From: a virus
Virus record (IMG/VR): IMGVR_UViG_3300031251_000031
Span: 1-49,426 of that record
Direction: 5' to 3' (one strand)
Length of the DNA: 49,426 nucleotides
Below, one piece after another: positions 29,768-47,160 of this stretch; positions within the stretch are counted from its first letter, which is position 1, and every line of letters starts with the position of its first letter. Under the pieces are notes generated by a model that was not told the origin of the DNA, made no database searches, and saw only the letters and a program-made list of their open reading frames with translations. A program made the translations under genes and the position numbers.

Positions 29768-29775
29768 GTGCCTCC

Positions 29776-29788
29776 TTACTGGCTCAGG
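29776..29788 (-). repeat. Dispersed motif copy
   Basis: A perfect copy that encodes the last residues LSQ and the stop of the HD gene, then leads into GGAGG for the small membrane protein. TGGCTC 13 bases upstream can pair with its GAGCCA. Confidence 0.93.
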
Positions 29789-30318
29789 TTGTTGAAGCGA
29801 GCCAGGAACTCATGCTCGGCTCGCCTCGGGGGCATCGCGTGCAGGCTCCAGGGGAGCGGGCCGAAGGACTCCGCCCCGTGTAGCCAGTCCTCCTCGGACG
29901 CCGCCAGGGGCGCGAGCAGGTCACGGCGTTCGGTGGCCAACAGGATGCCGTCGGCCTCCTTTACGGAGCGGGGTTCCTCGATGGCCAGTCCGTAGCGGAT
30001 GCAGACAGCCGCCTGCACGCGCTTCTCGATCCGGCGGAACGCTGCCATCTCGGGCGTGTGCTTGATCGGGCGGATCATGTCGCCCACGTATGCCTCGGCC
30101 GCGTCATGCAGTAGGCCCCACAGGGGCTCATCACAGGCGTGAGAGACCTCGACGGAGTGCTGCCCCACCGAGTAGAACTCCAGGGCGGCCCCGCCGTAGC
30201 GGGTGCGCTGGCTCAGGTGGTGGGCGATGTCCTCGATGTGGACTTCCTCCGGCCGGGGATCGAGCGGGAAGAACTGCCGCCCGGTGTAGGTCTGCATCCA
30301 CGGCCCTCGATCAGTCAT
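29776..30318 (-). CDS. HD-domain phosphohydrolase (YfbR-like)
   Basis: 180 residues, ATG overlapping the upstream stop. The HD site is visible as SVGQHS, LLHDAAEAYVGDM and a later Asp in KEADG. YfbR-like enzymes remove phosphate from deoxynucleoside monophosphates. The C-terminal NNLSQ is supplied by the dispersed motif, so the last residues may not matter for function. Confidence 0.8.
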   Translation of the reverse strand: MTDRGPWMQTYTGRQFFPLDPRPEEVHIEDIAHHLSQRTRYGGAALEFYSVGQHSVEVSHACDEPLWGLLHDAAEAYVGDMIRPIKHTPEMAAFRRIEKRVQAAVCIRYGLAIEEPRSVKEADGILLATERRDLLAPLAASEEDWLHGAESFGPLPWSLHAMPPRRAEHEFLARFNNLSQ

Positions 30319-30859: not shown

Positions 30860-31454
30860 TGTGCACCACGTCCTTCAGTTCGCGCTGGAGATCCCGCAGG
30901 CGGTCATTGCCAGCCTTGTTCAGGCGCTGCTGGGCGGCGATGCGGGTGCGAAGACGCCGCTCCTCGCCGATGACCTTGCGGACGACCTGCCGCATGTACC
31001 CCGTCCAGGGGCACTCGACGGCCTCGCGGGTCTGCCCGACCAGGCGGACGACTCCAACGACCTCGTTGTAGCCGATGGGCACCAGCACGTGGTCTCCAAC
31101 CTTCAGGCCCAGGCCCTCATCGAGGTAGGTCAGTTCCTTGAACCGGCCGCCCAGGTTGGTCTCCGGGTCAAGCCCAGCGACGGTGACGAACTGCACCTTG
31201 GGATCTCCGGCGGGCCGGTATGGAACCACCTCGTCGGGGGTGAACAGCAGGGTCACCTCGCCTTGGGCGTCACCCAGGGGGCCATGGAACAGCTTGCCCC
31301 GGATGGTGCCCTCGATGTAGCCGTTGGTGTTGTCGATCACCTCGACGGGCTCGCCCGCGTAGTTCTCGGCGTAGTTGGCGGCGAACTCTGTGCCACGCAC
31401 CAGCGTGACAAAGCTACCGATGGGAAAGTCTGTTGATTTCAGGTGGGATATCAT
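30852..31454 (-). CDS. Hypothetical protein with C-terminal coiled coil
   Basis: ATG at 31454 has AAGGAGG upstream. The 200-residue product has an N-terminal beta part with repeats of the type GxxVxLV..GxxV (residues 8-150) and an Arg-rich helical end (EERRLRTRIAAQQRLNKAG). It overlaps the polymerase C-half by 4 bases. No family is recognised. Confidence 0.7.
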   Translation of the reverse strand: MISHLKSTDFPIGSFVTLVRGTEFAANYAENYAGEPVEVIDNTNGYIEGTIRGKLFHGPLGDAQGEVTLLFTPDEVVPYRPAGDPKVQFVTVAGLDPETNLGGRFKELTYLDEGLGLKVGDHVLVPIGYNEVVGVVRLVGQTREAVECPWTGYMRQVVRKVIGEERRLRTRIAAQQRLNKAGNDRLRDLQRELKDVVHNG

Positions 31455-32269
31455 GCTGCCTCCTTGGGGTAGCAAGGGCGCTTGTCTGCCCAGGTCGTGG
31501 GCGACCACTCCGGGTCGGGCACGATGGGGACTGACGCCTGAATGCGGGGGTCGGTCATCCACTGGGGGACAAGCACCGACAGGTCTTTGATCTCGTCCAT
31601 CGCGCAATCGAGCATCAACTCGTCGTGCACGGTGTTGACCATGTGCGAGCGGTAGCCGCCCGCCTTGAGGTTGTCGTGCACCTGCTCCATCGCCCACTTC
31701 ATCAGGTCGGCGGCGCACCCTTGACACAGGGCGTTGAGTGCCGAATGCATGGAGCGGGGGTGCAGGTGGCGGCCGTAGAGCGTCTTGATGTAGCCAGGCT
31801 CATCGTCCGTCTTGGTGGCGGCCACCTGGGACTCGATCATGTGGATCAGCGTCCCGGGGTCGGCCTTCTGTCGCTTGGTGCTCCACCCGATGCCCGGCCA
31901 CTGGCCGTGGTAGCCCTGAAGCAGGGACAGGGCCTCCGGTGCGGTGACCTCCAGCTGACGCATCAGCGTGGGCATCCCGCCTCCGTAGACGATGGAGAAG
32001 TTGAACGTCTTGCCGATCTGGCGCTGCTCGTCGGTCATCCCCTCGACGGGGATGCCAAGGGCACCAGCGGCGGACTCGCAATGCAGGTCGCGGCCCTCCC
32101 GGAACACGTCGGCCATCGATGGCCACCCGATCATCTCCAGGTACATGGCCAGGATCTTGAGTTCGATGTTCGGGAAGTCGGCGAACAGGAATGCGTCCAG
32201 CTTGGGCACGAACGCGGCCTTCACGTCCTTTGCCTTGCGGGGCATCGTCTGCGCGTTCAAATCGCTCAC
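31451..32269 (-). CDS. DNA polymerase A, C-terminal half (split gene)
   Basis: 272 residues covering the fingers and rest of the palm of a family A polymerase. Motif A is ADFPNIELKILA, motif B is RQIGKTFNFSIVYGGG, and motif C is VHDEL, all intact. It starts at residues S-D-L-N-A-Q, which align with the SD-x-N-x-Q that normally follows TGRxSS, and that TGRASS ends the other half at 34321. Together the halves make a full polymerase with no residue lost. GTG at 32269 keeps S-D; TTG at 32260 has better spacing to AAGGGGG. The split parts must associate if the enzyme is active. Confidence 0.9.
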   Translation of the reverse strand: MSDLNAQTMPRKAKDVKAAFVPKLDAFLFADFPNIELKILAMYLEMIGWPSMADVFREGRDLHCESAAGALGIPVEGMTDEQRQIGKTFNFSIVYGGGMPTLMRQLEVTAPEALSLLQGYHGQWPGIGWSTKRQKADPGTLIHMIESQVAATKTDDEPGYIKTLYGRHLHPRSMHSALNALCQGCAADLMKWAMEQVHDNLKAGGYRSHMVNTVHDELMLDCAMDEIKDLSVLVPQWMTDPRIQASVPIVPDPEWSPTTWADKRPCYPKEAA

Positions 32270-32273
32270 CCCC

Positions 32274-32286
32274 TTACTGGCTCAGG
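32274..32286 (-). repeat. Dispersed motif copy at the polymerase C-half
   Basis: A perfect copy within ACAACCTGAGCCAGTAAGG. It sits at one end of the module that separates the polymerase halves; the same run lies at 34299 at the other end. It leads into the GGGGG upstream of the C-half. Confidence 0.93.
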
Positions 32287-32518
32287 TTGTTGTGGAACGG
32301 AATCGGGGTTCAGGGGCAGAAAAAATAAAGGCGTCTTCCCGCGCACACCCGGGTGCCGCCGCGCTGAACGACTGACACGGCACCACGGGCGGCGGGATGG
32401 GCACCCCGCTCCCCAACGGGGTCGCCCTAAACGGCAGGCACCGTCACCGCCAACCAAAGGGCGGGCCGCTCCCCACGCGCGGGGTGGACGGTTACTACGA
32501 CTCCCCTGCCGGGGGACT

Positions 32519-32547
32519 TTGCAACTCTTGGTGCGGGTCGCTAGGCT
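32519..32547 (+). promoter_or_regulatory. Promoter for integrase
   Basis: TTGCAA at 32519-32524 and TAGGCT at 32542-32547 are 17 bases apart, a good sigma-70-type match. The expected start of transcription is near 32555, about 65 bases before the integrase ATG. The -10 box overlaps an inverted repeat, so it could be self-regulated. Confidence 0.55.
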
Positions 32548-32564
32548 TGACGGAGACTCAAGCC
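32544..32564. repeat. 7-7-7 inverted repeat: operator or attP core candidate
   Basis: GGCTTGA and TCAAGCC are perfect inverted arms around a 7-base centre. Tyrosine recombinase core sites have this form: two short inverted arms with a 6-8 base overlap region between. It lies 56 bases before the integrase ATG and overlaps the promoter -10 box, so a repressor operator is the other reading. Confidence 0.45.
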
Positions 32565-32619
32565 GAGTCCGCACTACCGCTTGGAATGCGGAGCGCATAA
32601 CTCAAGGGTGGGAGGCGCT

Positions 32620-33396
32620 ATGACGATAACGGGTGACATGATCTTCGAGGCTTACGAGAGCAGGCTCCGTCGGCGCCAGGCGAGCCCCTGCACCATGCAG
32701 GGATTCCGCATCGCTGCGGCCCACTTCGAGCGTTCCCTCGACCCCGCCACGGCGACCGCCCTCGACATCGAGGAATGGCTCAGCGGGCAGGGATGGGCGG
32801 TGTCCACTCAGCACACGGTCTTCACATGGGTGCGGGCGAGCTACCGCTATGCGGTGAAGCGCGGGCTTCTCGACCGTGACCCGACCGTGATGGTGGAGTT
32901 GCCCCGGCTTCCCGACCCCGACCCCCGCTGCCTCACGGTGGCGGAGATTGAGGACGCCGTATCGGGGTGCCGGAGCGAGCTTGACCTTCTGATCCTCGAT
33001 CTGTTCCGGTACACCGGCATGAGGATCGTGGAGATGCACCGCCTCACCGTCAACGACATCGAGGGCGGGCAGATGCACATTCATGGGAAGGGCGGCCGGT
33101 GGCGCTGGCTCCCGATCCACCCGGAGATCAGGCTCACCACGACCCACCCGTGGGTGTTGCCCGGGCGCAACGGCCCGATGACGACGGCGGCGATCCGCAA
33201 GCGGCTCGGCCGGTTCACGGACGCCAACCCGCACTCATTCCGCTCGACGGTGGCGACGTACCTAGGCCGGGCCGACGTGCCGGAGACTGTGATCCAGGCG
33301 ATCCTCGGCCACCGCCCGAACACGATCTACGGTCGGCACTACCGCGTGGTCAGCCCGGACGAGATGCTACGGGCGCTGCTCCAGCTGCCCTACTGA
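32620..33396 (+). CDS. int: Tyrosine integrase/recombinase
   Basis: 258 residues, ATG with GGGAGG upstream, the only rightward gene in this arm. The catalytic set is visible: Arg in YTGMRIVEMHRL, the Lys-type strand in HGKGGRWRWLP, HxxR in HSFRSTVATYL, and His with Tyr in LGHRPNTIYGRHYR. The N-terminal 85 residues form a core-binding domain. It is short and lacks an arm-binding domain, so it is XerC-like. Its 3' end overlaps the leftward gene by 7 bases. Confidence 0.9.
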   Translation: MTITGDMIFEAYESRLRRRQASPCTMQGFRIAAAHFERSLDPATATALDIEEWLSGQGWAVSTQHTVFTWVRASYRYAVKRGLLDRDPTVMVELPRLPDPDPRCLTVAEIEDAVSGCRSELDLLILDLFRYTGMRIVEMHRLTVNDIEGGQMHIHGKGGRWRWLPIHPEIRLTTTHPWVLPGRNGPMTTAAIRKRLGRFTDANPHSFRSTVATYLGRADVPETVIQAILGHRPNTIYGRHYRVVSPDEMLRALLQLPY

Positions 33397-33611
33397 AGTC
33401 CCCACCACGTGCCATCCTTTTTGTGCCACTCCTGCCGTCCGCAATGGGCGCACTTGCGCATCAGCTGGCCGTTGGGGTCGTACATCGGCTTGGCCCACTT
33501 GTGCCCGGCGGCCTCACAGTCCCGGCGCCGGAGCTTGGCGGCGTGCTGGCGGATCAGCACCTCCTGCCAGAACACGGTCACCAGCACCCCGAAGATCCCG
33601 GAGGCGACCAT
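33390..33611 (-). CDS. Membrane-anchored zinc-finger-like protein
   Basis: ATG at 33611 overlaps the upstream stop (TGATG) and gives 73 residues; GTG at 33626 is possible. An N-terminal hydrophobic stretch (ASGIFGVLVTVFWQEVLI) is followed by a basic part and CEAAGH..CAHCG, a Cys-rich end that could bind zinc. It converges with integrase. Function unknown. Confidence 0.65.
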   Translation of the reverse strand: MVASGIFGVLVTVFWQEVLIRQHAAKLRRRDCEAAGHKWAKPMYDPNGQLMRKCAHCGRQEWHKKDGTWWGLQ

Positions 33612-33730
33612 CAGAGCCAGTTCCACAACCCCACCTTCAGGAAGATGGCGGCCAGGACGAACACGGCGGGGAGGGCCACGATGGTCATGCCCAGCGCGTA
33701 GAGCGCGGCCATGCCTTTGGGCGGCACCAT
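33611..33730 (-). CDS. Small membrane protein
   Basis: 39 residues, ATG at 33730 overlapping the SLOG-family stop. Nearly all of it is hydrophobic (ALYALGMTIVALPAVFVLAA). It is coupled to the next membrane protein by a TGATG overlap. Function unknown. Confidence 0.65.
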   Translation of the reverse strand: MVPPKGMAALYALGMTIVALPAVFVLAAIFLKVGLWNWL

Positions 33731-34287
33731 CAGTCCTCCTCGCTGCCAGGGTCGGACGTGTCGCCCGCGTACTCGGGCTCCTCGGCCTCGACGGCCGCAA
33801 GCTCCCGCACGTCCCCGCCCCACTCCGAACGGAACGCCTGCAAGCGCACGCGGCCAGGGAGAAGCGGGTCAGGCACGAACACGGCGAACGGGCACTCGCT
33901 CAGCCCCAGCCGCTTGATGGTGTCGGCGGTGCCCCGGCTGTGGCCGTCCCAGAAGACGTATGCCTCCCCGTCTTCCTCCGTGATGAACTCGATCATCTCC
34001 GCGTTGCGGATCGGGCCAGCCTTGCGGCCGTACTGCTTCCAGTCGGCCGTGAAGGTCATGGTCTTCAGGTCGTACAGGCTGGCTGCCTGCGATGCCCAGG
34101 TGTCCACTCCTCGCGCCCCGCCCTGCACGATGCAGAGCGCCGGGTTCGGGAATGAGTGCTCAGCTGCCTCCGCCAAGCGCCGGACGTGCTCGAACACCGC
34201 GTTGCGCAGGGTGTGGCTATCGGGCCGCATCGCGTCGCTGTCAGGGAATAACTCCGGGCGGCTGCCCGCGATCAGTATGTACTTCAT
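33730..34287 (-). CDS. SLOG-family protein (DUF2493/YAcAr type)
   Basis: 185 residues, ATG with AAGGAGG upstream. The Rossmann-like SLOG pattern is visible: YILIAGSRP at the start, IVQGGARGVDTWAS, ADWKQYGRKAGPIRNAEMIEF. Families of this kind bind nucleotides or nucleotide-derived signals and are found in phages and near defence genes. The C-terminal 35 residues are acidic and probably disordered. It lies within the module that splits the DNA polymerase. Confidence 0.82.
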   Translation of the reverse strand: MKYILIAGSRPELFPDSDAMRPDSHTLRNAVFEHVRRLAEAAEHSFPNPALCIVQGGARGVDTWASQAASLYDLKTMTFTADWKQYGRKAGPIRNAEMIEFITEEDGEAYVFWDGHSRGTADTIKRLGLSECPFAVFVPDPLLPGRVRLQAFRSEWGGDVRELAAVEAEEPEYAGDTSDPGSEED

Positions 34288-34298
34288 GGCGGCCCTCC

Positions 34299-34311
34299 TT
34301 ACTGGCTCAGG
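34299..34311 (-). repeat. Dispersed motif copy at the polymerase N-half end
   Basis: A perfect copy 9 bases beyond the polymerase N-half stop, within the same ACAACCTGAGCCAGTAAGG found at 32274. GGGG at 34317-34320 pairs with CCCC at 34326-34329, so a small hairpin holding the stop codon lies just before it. It leads into GGAGG for the SLOG gene. Confidence 0.93.
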
Positions 34312-34320
34312 TTGTCGGGG

Positions 34321-35511
34321 TCAGTCCCCGCGCTCGGCACCGCTCGACGCACGGCCGGTGACCGTGCCGAATGGATTGATGCTCGGGTGGTACACACCGT
34401 TGGGCGACTCATCCCAGAGGGACGTGAAGTAGCCGTCCAACAGCTTCTTGTCGCCGCGGTAGGCCAACAGGGCGTCGGCGAGCGGGTGGTCAATCAGCTT
34501 CAGGTTGGCGGCGTCGTAGCTGTCACGCACGAACCCGCGATCCCGGAAGTAGTCGGCGACCTCATCGTCGCTGGCCGGGTTGAAGAACAGCGGGCGCTCC
34601 TTGGGCGTCATGTGCCCAGACCGGCATGGCTTGCCGACGATGGACTCCATCGACAGTTCGTGCTGGATCACCCGGTTGCGGTACTCCTTGACCTTCTCGC
34701 CCACGTAGTCGCGGCGGACGGCCATCCCGGCCTTCTCCAGGTCGAAGATGATCTCGGTGCAAAGGCGTACCTCTCGGAGGTACAACTCGTGAACCTCGGG
34801 GTGGCGGAGCACCTGCGGGTAGAGCACACGGGCCAGGGCGTATGTCCACTCAGCATCCTTGATCCCGTAGGGGACGACGGTGCCTCGGGGGAGCAGGTGG
34901 TACCCGACCTCTTTGATGGACGCCAGGCCGTACTGCTTTTTCGCCCAGAGCTTGGCCAGCCCGGTCTCATGCTCCTCGCGGGGCTTCTCGACGGTGTACT
35001 CCTGCCATTCGCCCTCGACCTTGCGGCGCTTGGTCAGGGTCACGGTGTCGTTGACTCCCAGCAGGGACACCGCGAGCCCCTTGAGCTTCTTGGGGCGGTG
35101 CTCATCGAGCAGGTGCGACATCAGCGCGGTGTCGTGCCACTGGATGCGGGCACGGTCGGCGTCGGTCAGCAGGCCAGCAATGTCCGCCTTGTGGGCGTCG
35201 AACTTGACGTTATGGCATACGGTGACATCGACGTGGGCGAACATGCTGCGCAGGAAGTCCCGGACACCCGGCGGGCTATGGAGTAGCTGCACCGGGTCTC
35301 CCAGGTCGAACCAGTGGGCCTCGGGGTCGCCGAACTCCGGCTGCCAAGCCACCTGCACCGAGAACGGCTGATCGTGGTACGCCAGCCCGGTGGTCTCCGT
35401 GTCGAATGCGATCACCTTGGGGCGGTCACGCTCGAACGCTGCGATCCCGGCTGCCGCAAGGGCCTCCAGGTCGGGGGCCTCGGGCGGCTGCCAGGCGTCA
35501 GCCGAAGGCAC
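34321..35511 (-). CDS. DNA polymerase A, N-terminal half with 3'-5' exonuclease (split gene)
   Basis: 396 residues from GTG at 35511, which overlaps the ERF stop. The exonuclease domain is complete: VIAFDTETTGL (motif I), VCHNVKFDAHKAD (motif II), YGIKDAEW (motif III). The thumb and start of the palm follow and end at INPFGTVTGRASS, then five extra residues and a stop. The missing rest is at 31451-32269. It is cut exactly where family A enzymes read TGRxSS-SDxNxQ. The split is by module insertion, not decay, as both halves keep their catalytic residues. Confidence 0.9.
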   Translation of the reverse strand: MPSADAWQPPEAPDLEALAAAGIAAFERDRPKVIAFDTETTGLAYHDQPFSVQVAWQPEFGDPEAHWFDLGDPVQLLHSPPGVRDFLRSMFAHVDVTVCHNVKFDAHKADIAGLLTDADRARIQWHDTALMSHLLDEHRPKKLKGLAVSLLGVNDTVTLTKRRKVEGEWQEYTVEKPREEHETGLAKLWAKKQYGLASIKEVGYHLLPRGTVVPYGIKDAEWTYALARVLYPQVLRHPEVHELYLREVRLCTEIIFDLEKAGMAVRRDYVGEKVKEYRNRVIQHELSMESIVGKPCRSGHMTPKERPLFFNPASDDEVADYFRDRGFVRDSYDAANLKLIDHPLADALLAYRGDKKLLDGYFTSLWDESPNGVYHPSINPFGTVTGRASSGAERGD

Positions 35512-35995
35512 CGGCCCCGGACGCGAACGGGTCGCCACTCGCGTCGTTGGCGTTGGTGGCGGCTCCCGGCACCGGCTGGCTGCGGGGCGGCGTTGCGCTA
35601 TTGGCGTCATCGTCCACGTCGGCGACGATGGAGAGGGCGGCCATCAGGGCGTAGCGGCGGGTGTAGGTCACGGCGCTGCCCAGCCCCTGCGGGTCACGCT
35701 TGCCCAGCACGATGGGCGTCAGGTACTCCAGGTTCTCGCCGGTGCTGGCGAGTACCAGGCGGGTGGCGATGGCAGGCACGCTGCCGGAGTCCCCGTCGAA
35801 CACCTGTGACAGCGGCTGCATGAGCAGGACGCCGTGCTTCTGGAGGATCGGGAGCACCTGCTCCGTGAGGGAGTCCAGGGTGATGTACTTGCTCCCGAAA
35901 TGCGGGTTGATGCCCTGCTTCTGGAGCGTCGGGATCTCCGACTGCACCTTGAACAGAGCCTCCGCCAGGGTGGCGGGCTTTGCGGCTGCGGGCAT
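35498..35995 (-). CDS. ERF-family single-strand annealing protein
   Basis: 165 residues, ATG directly after a TAATG junction. The ERF core is visible: LFKVQSEIPTLQKQG, FGSKYITLDSL, HGVLLMQPLSQ, GSAVTYTRRYALMAALSIVADVDDDA. These proteins anneal single strands in phage recombination. The C-terminus is low-complexity. Next to a Cas4/RecB-like nuclease it probably forms a two-part recombination system. Confidence 0.9.
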   Translation of the reverse strand: MPAAAKPATLAEALFKVQSEIPTLQKQGINPHFGSKYITLDSLTEQVLPILQKHGVLLMQPLSQVFDGDSGSVPAIATRLVLASTGENLEYLTPIVLGKRDPQGLGSAVTYTRRYALMAALSIVADVDDDANSATPPRSQPVPGAATNANDASGDPFASGAGAFG

Positions 35996-36144
35996 TACTG
36001 CGCCCTCCGAAGCTCAAACGCCACGTACAAGCAGGCGGCGCGGTGCAGGCCAAGGGGCGACTCTCCGATGGCGGCAAGGCGATTGCCAGATTCGCGGCAT
36101 TCTCGGAGTAGGTTTGCGAGCGCGTTGATCTTCTCAGCGGTCAT
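35995..36144 (-). CDS. Small protein between nuclease and ERF
   Basis: ATG at 36144 has AAGGAGG upstream and overlaps the nuclease stop (ATGA); the stop overlaps the ERF start (TAATG). The 49 residues are helical with two Cys (CRESGNR, AACLYV). No function is known. Coupling on both sides supports coding. Confidence 0.68.
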   Translation of the reverse strand: MTAEKINALANLLRECRESGNRLAAIGESPLGLHRAACLYVAFELRRAQ

Positions 36145-37112: not shown

Positions 37113-37118
37113 CGCTCC

Positions 37119-37131
37119 TTACTGGCTCAGG
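37119..37131 (-). repeat. Dispersed motif copy before the nuclease
   Basis: A perfect copy running into AAGGAG and the nuclease ATG. Upstream is the tRNA-like element at 37144-37213, not a gene. Confidence 0.93.
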
Positions 37132-37143
37132 TTGTTGTGCAGA

Positions 37144-47103: not shown

Positions 47104-47113
47104 GGTTGCTCCC

Positions 47114-47126
47114 TTACTGGCTCAGG
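47114..47126 (-). repeat. Dispersed motif copy at the head of the leftward arm
   Basis: A perfect copy running into GGGAG of the 47103 gene. Confidence 0.93.
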
Positions 47127-47160
47127 TTGTCGGTACTGATGTGCTGATGTCTCCCGGCTC

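What the first reader, a model, noticed from the sequence alone, without database searches (positions are those of the whole stretch)
31451..35511. DNA polymerase A split at TGRxSS/SDxNxQ by a 2-kb module with an integrase
The N-half (34321-35511) ends at TGRASS plus five residues. The C-half (31451-32269) starts S-D-L-N-A-Q. Motifs exo I-III, A, B and C are all intact. The gap holds a SLOG protein, two membrane proteins and a tyrosine integrase. Both edges carry the same ACAACCTGAGCCAGTAAGG. This suggests the motif served as a recombination joint and the polymerase now works as two chains.
Basis: partly seen in the sequence, partly recalled or inferred. Interest (0 to 1): 0.92.

Follow-up and report, generated by a model that had tools for sequence, protein, structure and literature searches.

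The report
Phage DNA polymerase in two pieces
A group of uncultured phages, probably infecting actinobacteria, encodes its replicative family A DNA polymerase as two separate proteins, cut inside the catalytic palm at the same residue in three distantly related genomes, with different genes lodged in the gap, so the cut is old and shared rather than a recent accident caused by an integrase.

Summary
The split is real. One family A polymerase (exonuclease, thumb, first palm strand, ending TGRASS plus GAERGD) lies at 34321-35511, the rest (palm and fingers, starting N-A-Q) at 31451-32260. The halves meet without loss or overlap in PF00476 (123|124) and PHROG 17 (978|978). No other A-, B- or C-family polymerase was found.

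The 19-base repeat is a start-associated element with about 13 copies in the genome. Excision between the two copies would not join the frames. Two diverged relatives (IMG/VR ..3300049215_000235 and ..3300031623_000010) carry the same split at the same residue, each N-half ending TGR[AT]SSG[AS]ERGD. Their gaps hold other genes (two small ORFs; an aspartate carbamoyltransferase) and no integrase. N-half and C-half trees each put the three in one clade, so the split most likely arose once and the gap later collected cargo. In one relative the gap gene overlaps both halves, leaving no room for an intron.

Best reading: two chains that assemble into one polymerase (0.8). Activity is untested, and one relative has a 5-nt frameshift in the C-half. 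Precedent: OM43 phages MEP401/402, split about 18 residues further on.

The parts
34321..35511 (-). polA-N: 3'-5' exonuclease, thumb and first palm strand; GTG start, ends ...TGRASS-GAERGD-TGA
   Evidence: PF01612 2.5e-5, phrog_17 669-978; AlphaFold2 pLDDT 88, PDB matches phiVC8 DpoZ, G20c Pol I and Klenow; 49-51% identical to G006 and 30-32% to G018 N-halves
31451..32260 (-). polA-C: palm and fingers; probable TTG start (32260-32258), begins (M)NAQTMPRK; motifs A, B, C intact
   Evidence: PF00476 124-379 E 2e-45, phrog_17 978-1235; Klenow alignment continues where the N-half stops; AlphaFold2 pLDDT 91, Klenow E 3e-17
34321..34341 (-). codons of the conserved tail GAERGD on the N-half (GGT GCC GAG CGC GGG GAC) and the stop TGA
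   Evidence: same tail in G006 (GSERGD) and G018 (GAERGD) with synonymous codon differences, e.g. Arg CGC/CGC/AGA
34297..34315 (-). start-associated element upstream of the first gap gene
   Evidence: one of about 13 copies in the genome
32272..32290 (-). start-associated element upstream of polA-C; marks polA-C as a separately initiated gene
33730..34287 (-). gap gene 1: SLOG-like protein
   Evidence: PF10686 7.8e-6, phrog_289 7.5e-19
33611..33730 (-). gap gene 2: small hydrophobic protein (39 aa)
   Evidence: ORF only; no family match
33390..33611 (-). gap gene 3: small protein with hydrophobic N-terminus and CxxC (73 aa)
   Evidence: ORF only; no family match
32620..33396 (+). gap gene 4, opposite strand: tyrosine integrase with R, HxxR, LGH and Y
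   Evidence: PF00589 2.4e-14, phrog_1 2.5e-35
32291..32619 (.). non-coding stretch beside the integrase; possible attP (not shown)
   Evidence: no ORF with support, no Rfam match
35498..35995 (-). Erf-type single-strand annealing protein upstream of polA-N, overlapping it; same order in G006
   Evidence: PF04404 3.5e-24, 43% identical in G006

Best explanation
The phage makes a two-chain family A replicative DNA polymerase. Chain 1 carries the proofreading exonuclease, the thumb and the palm strand with the primer-binding TGRxSS. Chain 2 carries the rest of the palm and the fingers, with the three catalytic motifs, and is started separately from its own ribosome site at a weak start codon directly before N-x-Q. 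The chains fold together so that the palm is completed between them; the short tail GxERGD is the new C-terminus of chain 1. The split happened once, in an ancestor of this lineage, and the gap has since served as a landing place for unrelated genes (SLOG, small proteins and integrase here; aspartate carbamoyltransferase or small ORFs in relatives). Shown: conservation and position of the split, single clade for both halves, variable gap content, no intron room in G018, no second polymerase in these records. Inferred: assembly, activity, and the role of the tail.
For: Profiles tile without gap or overlap. The same split with the same tail occurs in G006 and G018. The three are one clade in the joint tree (100), the N tree (100/100) and the C tree (98/99), and belong to one phage lineage (TerL 63% and 44%). 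Gap contents differ. In G018 the gap gene overlaps both halves (stop TAA over ATT start) and TAG stands in frame directly before the C-half. The tail is conserved with synonymous codon changes, 6 of 6 residues between window and G018 although the N-halves are about 30% identical. N..Q is kept although it lies at the very start of chain 2. A start-associated element precedes polA-C. No PolB or PolIII in the three records. The TGRASS end of the N-half is predicted disordered on its own, while each body folds as the matching part of Klenow-type polymerases.
Against: G006 has a 5-nt insertion (TAGGC) inside motif A of the C-half that breaks its frame: assembly error, decay or recoding cannot be told apart. 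The pN/pS ratio of the N-half is high (0.73-0.83, against 0.53-0.59 for TerL; synonymous sites near saturation), so purifying selection on it is only weakly shown. Only three examples, all metagenomic contigs. No expression, complex or activity data; complex prediction was not possible with the tools.
Confidence: 0.8

Rival explanations
1. The gap is an intron (group I or II) that is spliced out, giving one polymerase chain.
For: Many phage polA genes hold group I introns (PMC11878797), and authors of the OM43 phage paper considered it for their split gene (PMC10580990).
Against: No Rfam match in 31000-36000. The gap holds an integrase on the opposite strand and genes with their own start elements. 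In G018 the gap gene overlaps both halves, so no RNA core fits outside its frame. The tail GxERGD is conserved as protein with codon changes, which is not expected of an intron end.
Confidence: 0.04
2. A mobile or programmed element: the integrase module jumped into polA through the repeat and can excise to restore it.
For: Integrase in the gap; identical 19-mers at both edges.
Against: Repeat present about 13 times, before other genes. Joining at the two copies leaves the N-half stop and two different frames. Relatives share the split without integrase in the gap; G006 carries an integrase homologue elsewhere.
Confidence: 0.03
3. Decay: the polymerase is a pseudogene in pieces, and the phage relies on the host polymerase.
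For: Frameshift in the G006 C-half; fast-evolving N-half.
Against: Both halves open and all catalytic motifs kept in the window and G018 at about 30-40% identity; same breakpoint and tail in three lineages.
Confidence: 0.07
4. The halves are two independent enzymes: a free exonuclease and a free minimal polymerase.
For: Exonuclease and polymerase can be separate chains in other systems (general knowledge).
Against: The N-half also keeps the thumb and the TGRxSS strand, which are useful only in the palm of an assembled polymerase; the N-half end is predicted unfolded alone.
Confidence: 0.06

Closest known systems
Split family A DNA polymerase of Methylophilales phages MEP401/MEP402 (OP830906, OP830907; PMC10580990)
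   Same: Exonuclease plus N-part of PF00476 in one gene, C-part in another, an unrelated small gene between; conserved in the phage group.
   Different: Cut lies after ...SSPNLQNFDGEIKTLFLSRYGE, about 18 residues further on, before motif A. The polymerases do not group with these in the tree; gap gene unrelated.
Intron-bearing polA genes of SPO1, Bastille and other Bacillus phages (PMC11878797)
   Same: Family A polymerase gene interrupted by other coding sequence.
   Different: Those are self-splicing group I introns with homing endonucleases; none was found here and G018 leaves no room for one.
Split PolB with split intein in Pseudomonas phage MIJ3 (PMC6892783)
   Same: Phage replicative polymerase in two genes around another gene.
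   Different: PolB, and intein blocks at the junction; here only 6 tail residues and no intein.
Split gp43 (PolB) of some T4-like phages and split NrdA of phage Aeh1 (from memory, not checked here)
   Same: Genes-in-pieces that keep function as two chains.
   Different: Other enzymes; breaks linked to homing endonucleases.
Start-associated sequences of Cluster K mycobacteriophages (PMC3203893)
   Same: Short repeated asymmetric sequence directly before many gene starts on one strand.
   Different: Different sequence (GGGATAGGAGCCC there; CCTGAGCCAGTAAGG here).

Membership tests
Family A DNA polymerase | PF00476 polymerase domain with motifs A, B, C | tested here: met
   C-half 2e-45, residues 124-379; D, E, R, K, F, Y and HD positions kept
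Family A DNA polymerase | one polypeptide holding thumb, palm and fingers | tested here: not met
   two open frames about 2 kb apart
Split PolA of the MEP401 kind | polA in two genes with an unrelated gene between, conserved in relatives | tested here: met
   three phages
Split PolA of the MEP401 kind | same breakpoint and common descent of the split | tested here: not met
   breakpoint about 18 residues apart; separate in the trees
Group I/II intron | intron RNA core in the gap | tested here: not met
   no Rfam match; no space in G018
Split intein | N- and C-intein blocks at the junction | tested here: not met
   six residues follow TGRASS; in-frame stop just upstream of the C-half
Integrase-excised interrupting element | recombination at end repeats restores the gene | tested here: not met
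   frames differ and the N-half stop remains
Start-associated sequence | repeat directly upstream of many gene starts on one strand | tested here: met
Two-chain active polymerase | chains bind and polymerise DNA | not testable with these tools
   only single-chain prediction was available

The most novel reading that the evidence does not exclude
An obligate two-chain family A replicase, cut inside the palm between the primer-binding TGRxSS and N-x-Q, in which the tail GxERGD is a selected docking element and separate translation of the two chains (strong SD with TTG or ATT start for the catalytic chain) sets the amount of exonuclease chain against polymerase chain.
Probability: 0.35. Interest if true: 0.7.

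Novelty: new variant of a known kind. Interest (0 to 1): 0.55.

Why it matters
It shows a replicative polymerase surviving as two chains across a deep phage lineage, with the cut in the catalytic palm. That gives a natural split site for polymerase engineering and a test of how gene boundaries become landing sites for cargo genes. It also warns that automatic annotation may count such genes as fragments or as introns. It comes with a published precedent at a different site, so it is a variant of a known kind.

Tried and rejected
Searches with either half as a single query found no relatives in IMG/VR because the patterns were too strict; the terminase query and the tail pattern did. Scanning 84,980 bacterial and archaeal species genomes for the tail pattern gave 14 hits, none in a polymerase, and the C-half profile gave none, so no prophage with this split was seen. 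The repeat scan in viral contigs gave only single chance-level hits. Intron, intein and excision models were tested and rejected. A link with 2-aminoadenine (Z) genomes was considered because the N-half resembles DpoZ and rejected: no PurZ in any of the three records. Homology of the small gap proteins of window and G006 was not supported.

Full report
What is there. The window is a 49,426-base IMG/VR virus record. On the minus strand two open frames together make one family A DNA polymerase. The N-half (34321-35511) carries the 3'-5' exonuclease motifs, the thumb and the strand ending TGRASS, followed by GAERGD and a stop. The C-half (31451-32260) begins with N-A-Q and carries motifs A, B and C. 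In PF00476 the halves end and begin at 123 and 124; in phrog_17 at 978 and 978. In the Klenow alignment the N-half runs to chain position 348 and the C-half from 350. Nothing is lost and nothing is duplicated. The record has no other polymerase of families A, B or C.

The repeat. The sequence ACAACCTGAGCCAGTAAGG at both edges occurs 13 times with up to three mismatches (0.01 expected). Nearly all copies lie directly before minus-strand genes, with a Shine-Dalgarno sequence and a start codon 7-15 nt further on. It is a start-associated element of the kind described for Cluster K mycobacteriophages (PMC3203893). It therefore marks polA-C as a gene with its own start; it is not a scar of an insertion. 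Its spacing favours the TTG at 32260 over the GTG at 32269 as start. If the two copies recombined, the N-half would still end at its TGA and the C-half would lie in another frame.

Relatives. A terminase search found the 48,099-base contig IMGVR_UViG_3300049215_000235 (G006; TerL 63% identical), and a search for the end TGRxSSGxERGD found the 44,995-base contig IMGVR_UViG_3300031623_000010 (G018; TerL 44%). Both have the same split. N-half ends are TGRTSSGSERGDS and TGRTSSGAERGDD; C-half beginnings are (TTG)NIQNIPRSD and (ATT)NVQNMPRTD. The gap in G006 is about 0.75 kb with two small ORFs; in G018 it is one aspartate carbamoyltransferase gene (PF02729 8.6e-44) whose start overlaps the N-half stop region and whose stop TAA overlaps the C-half start, with TAG in frame right before it. 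The integrase homologue of G006 (31%) lies several kb away. In the joint tree and in separate trees of N- and C-halves the three form one clade (support 100, 100/100, 98/99). Nearly all other family A polymerases read from about 80 viral contigs have an uninterrupted TGR..NxQ stretch, as do the structural relatives Arthrobacter phage Jasmine and Microbacterium phage Shocker.

What follows. The split is older than the gap content; the integrase did not cause it. The tail GxERGD keeps its amino acids through codon changes (Arg CGC, CGC, AGA; Ala or Ser GCC, TCG, GCA), while the N-halves have fallen to about 30% identity, so it is probably a translated and selected C-terminus. This, the lack of any intron family match and the overlapping gene in G018 argue against splicing. 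No intein can fit in the six residues or upstream of the C-half. Two chains that assemble is the remaining economical reading. AlphaFold2 gives confident folds for each half (pLDDT 88 and 91) that match Klenow-type polymerases. The last 14 residues of the N-half, the palm strand that would pair with the C-half, are the one part predicted unfolded.

Weak points. G006 has a 5-nt insertion in motif A of the C-half that breaks the frame; whether it is an assembly error is unknown. The pN/pS ratios are not low for the N-half (0.73-0.83; TerL 0.53-0.59), with synonymous sites near saturation and strong GC bias. There are three cases only, and no experiment. The host group (actinobacteria) is inferred from the weak capsid similarity to Arthrobacter, Microbacterium and Cellulosimicrobium phages.

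Known things. OM43 phages MEP401 and MEP402 have a family A polymerase in two genes with a small gene between (PMC10580990); reading their sequence shows the cut about 18 residues further on and they are not close in the trees. The case here is a second, independent split of the same enzyme at a new site.

Noticed in passing
L026:7023-7027 (G006): 5-nt insertion TAGGC in motif A of the G006 C-half (DYPN|IELK) breaks the frame; assembly error, decay or recoding.
   Followed up: partly
L114:3887-4816 (G018): A phage-encoded aspartate carbamoyltransferase (PF02729, PF00185) sits between the polymerase halves.
   Followed up: partly
window, about 13 sites, e.g. 47112-47130, 37117-37135, 29774-29792: Genome-wide start-associated element CCTGAGCCAGTAA(G/A)G before minus-strand genes; at some sites it also encodes the end NLSQ* of the gene before.
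   Followed up: partly
L027:1738-5012 (G014): Another phage polA interrupted by an ORF that looks like an HNH endonuclease, shortly after motif A.
   Followed up: no
L114 C-half (G018), motif B: Leucine at the position of Klenow F762 in G018, phenylalanine in the window and G006.
   Followed up: no
window:10095-10168: Single tRNA-Gln (CTG) gene among the structural genes.
   Followed up: no
window:34321-35511: The N-half is closest in fold and profile to DpoZ-type phage polymerases, yet no PurZ is present.
   Followed up: yes
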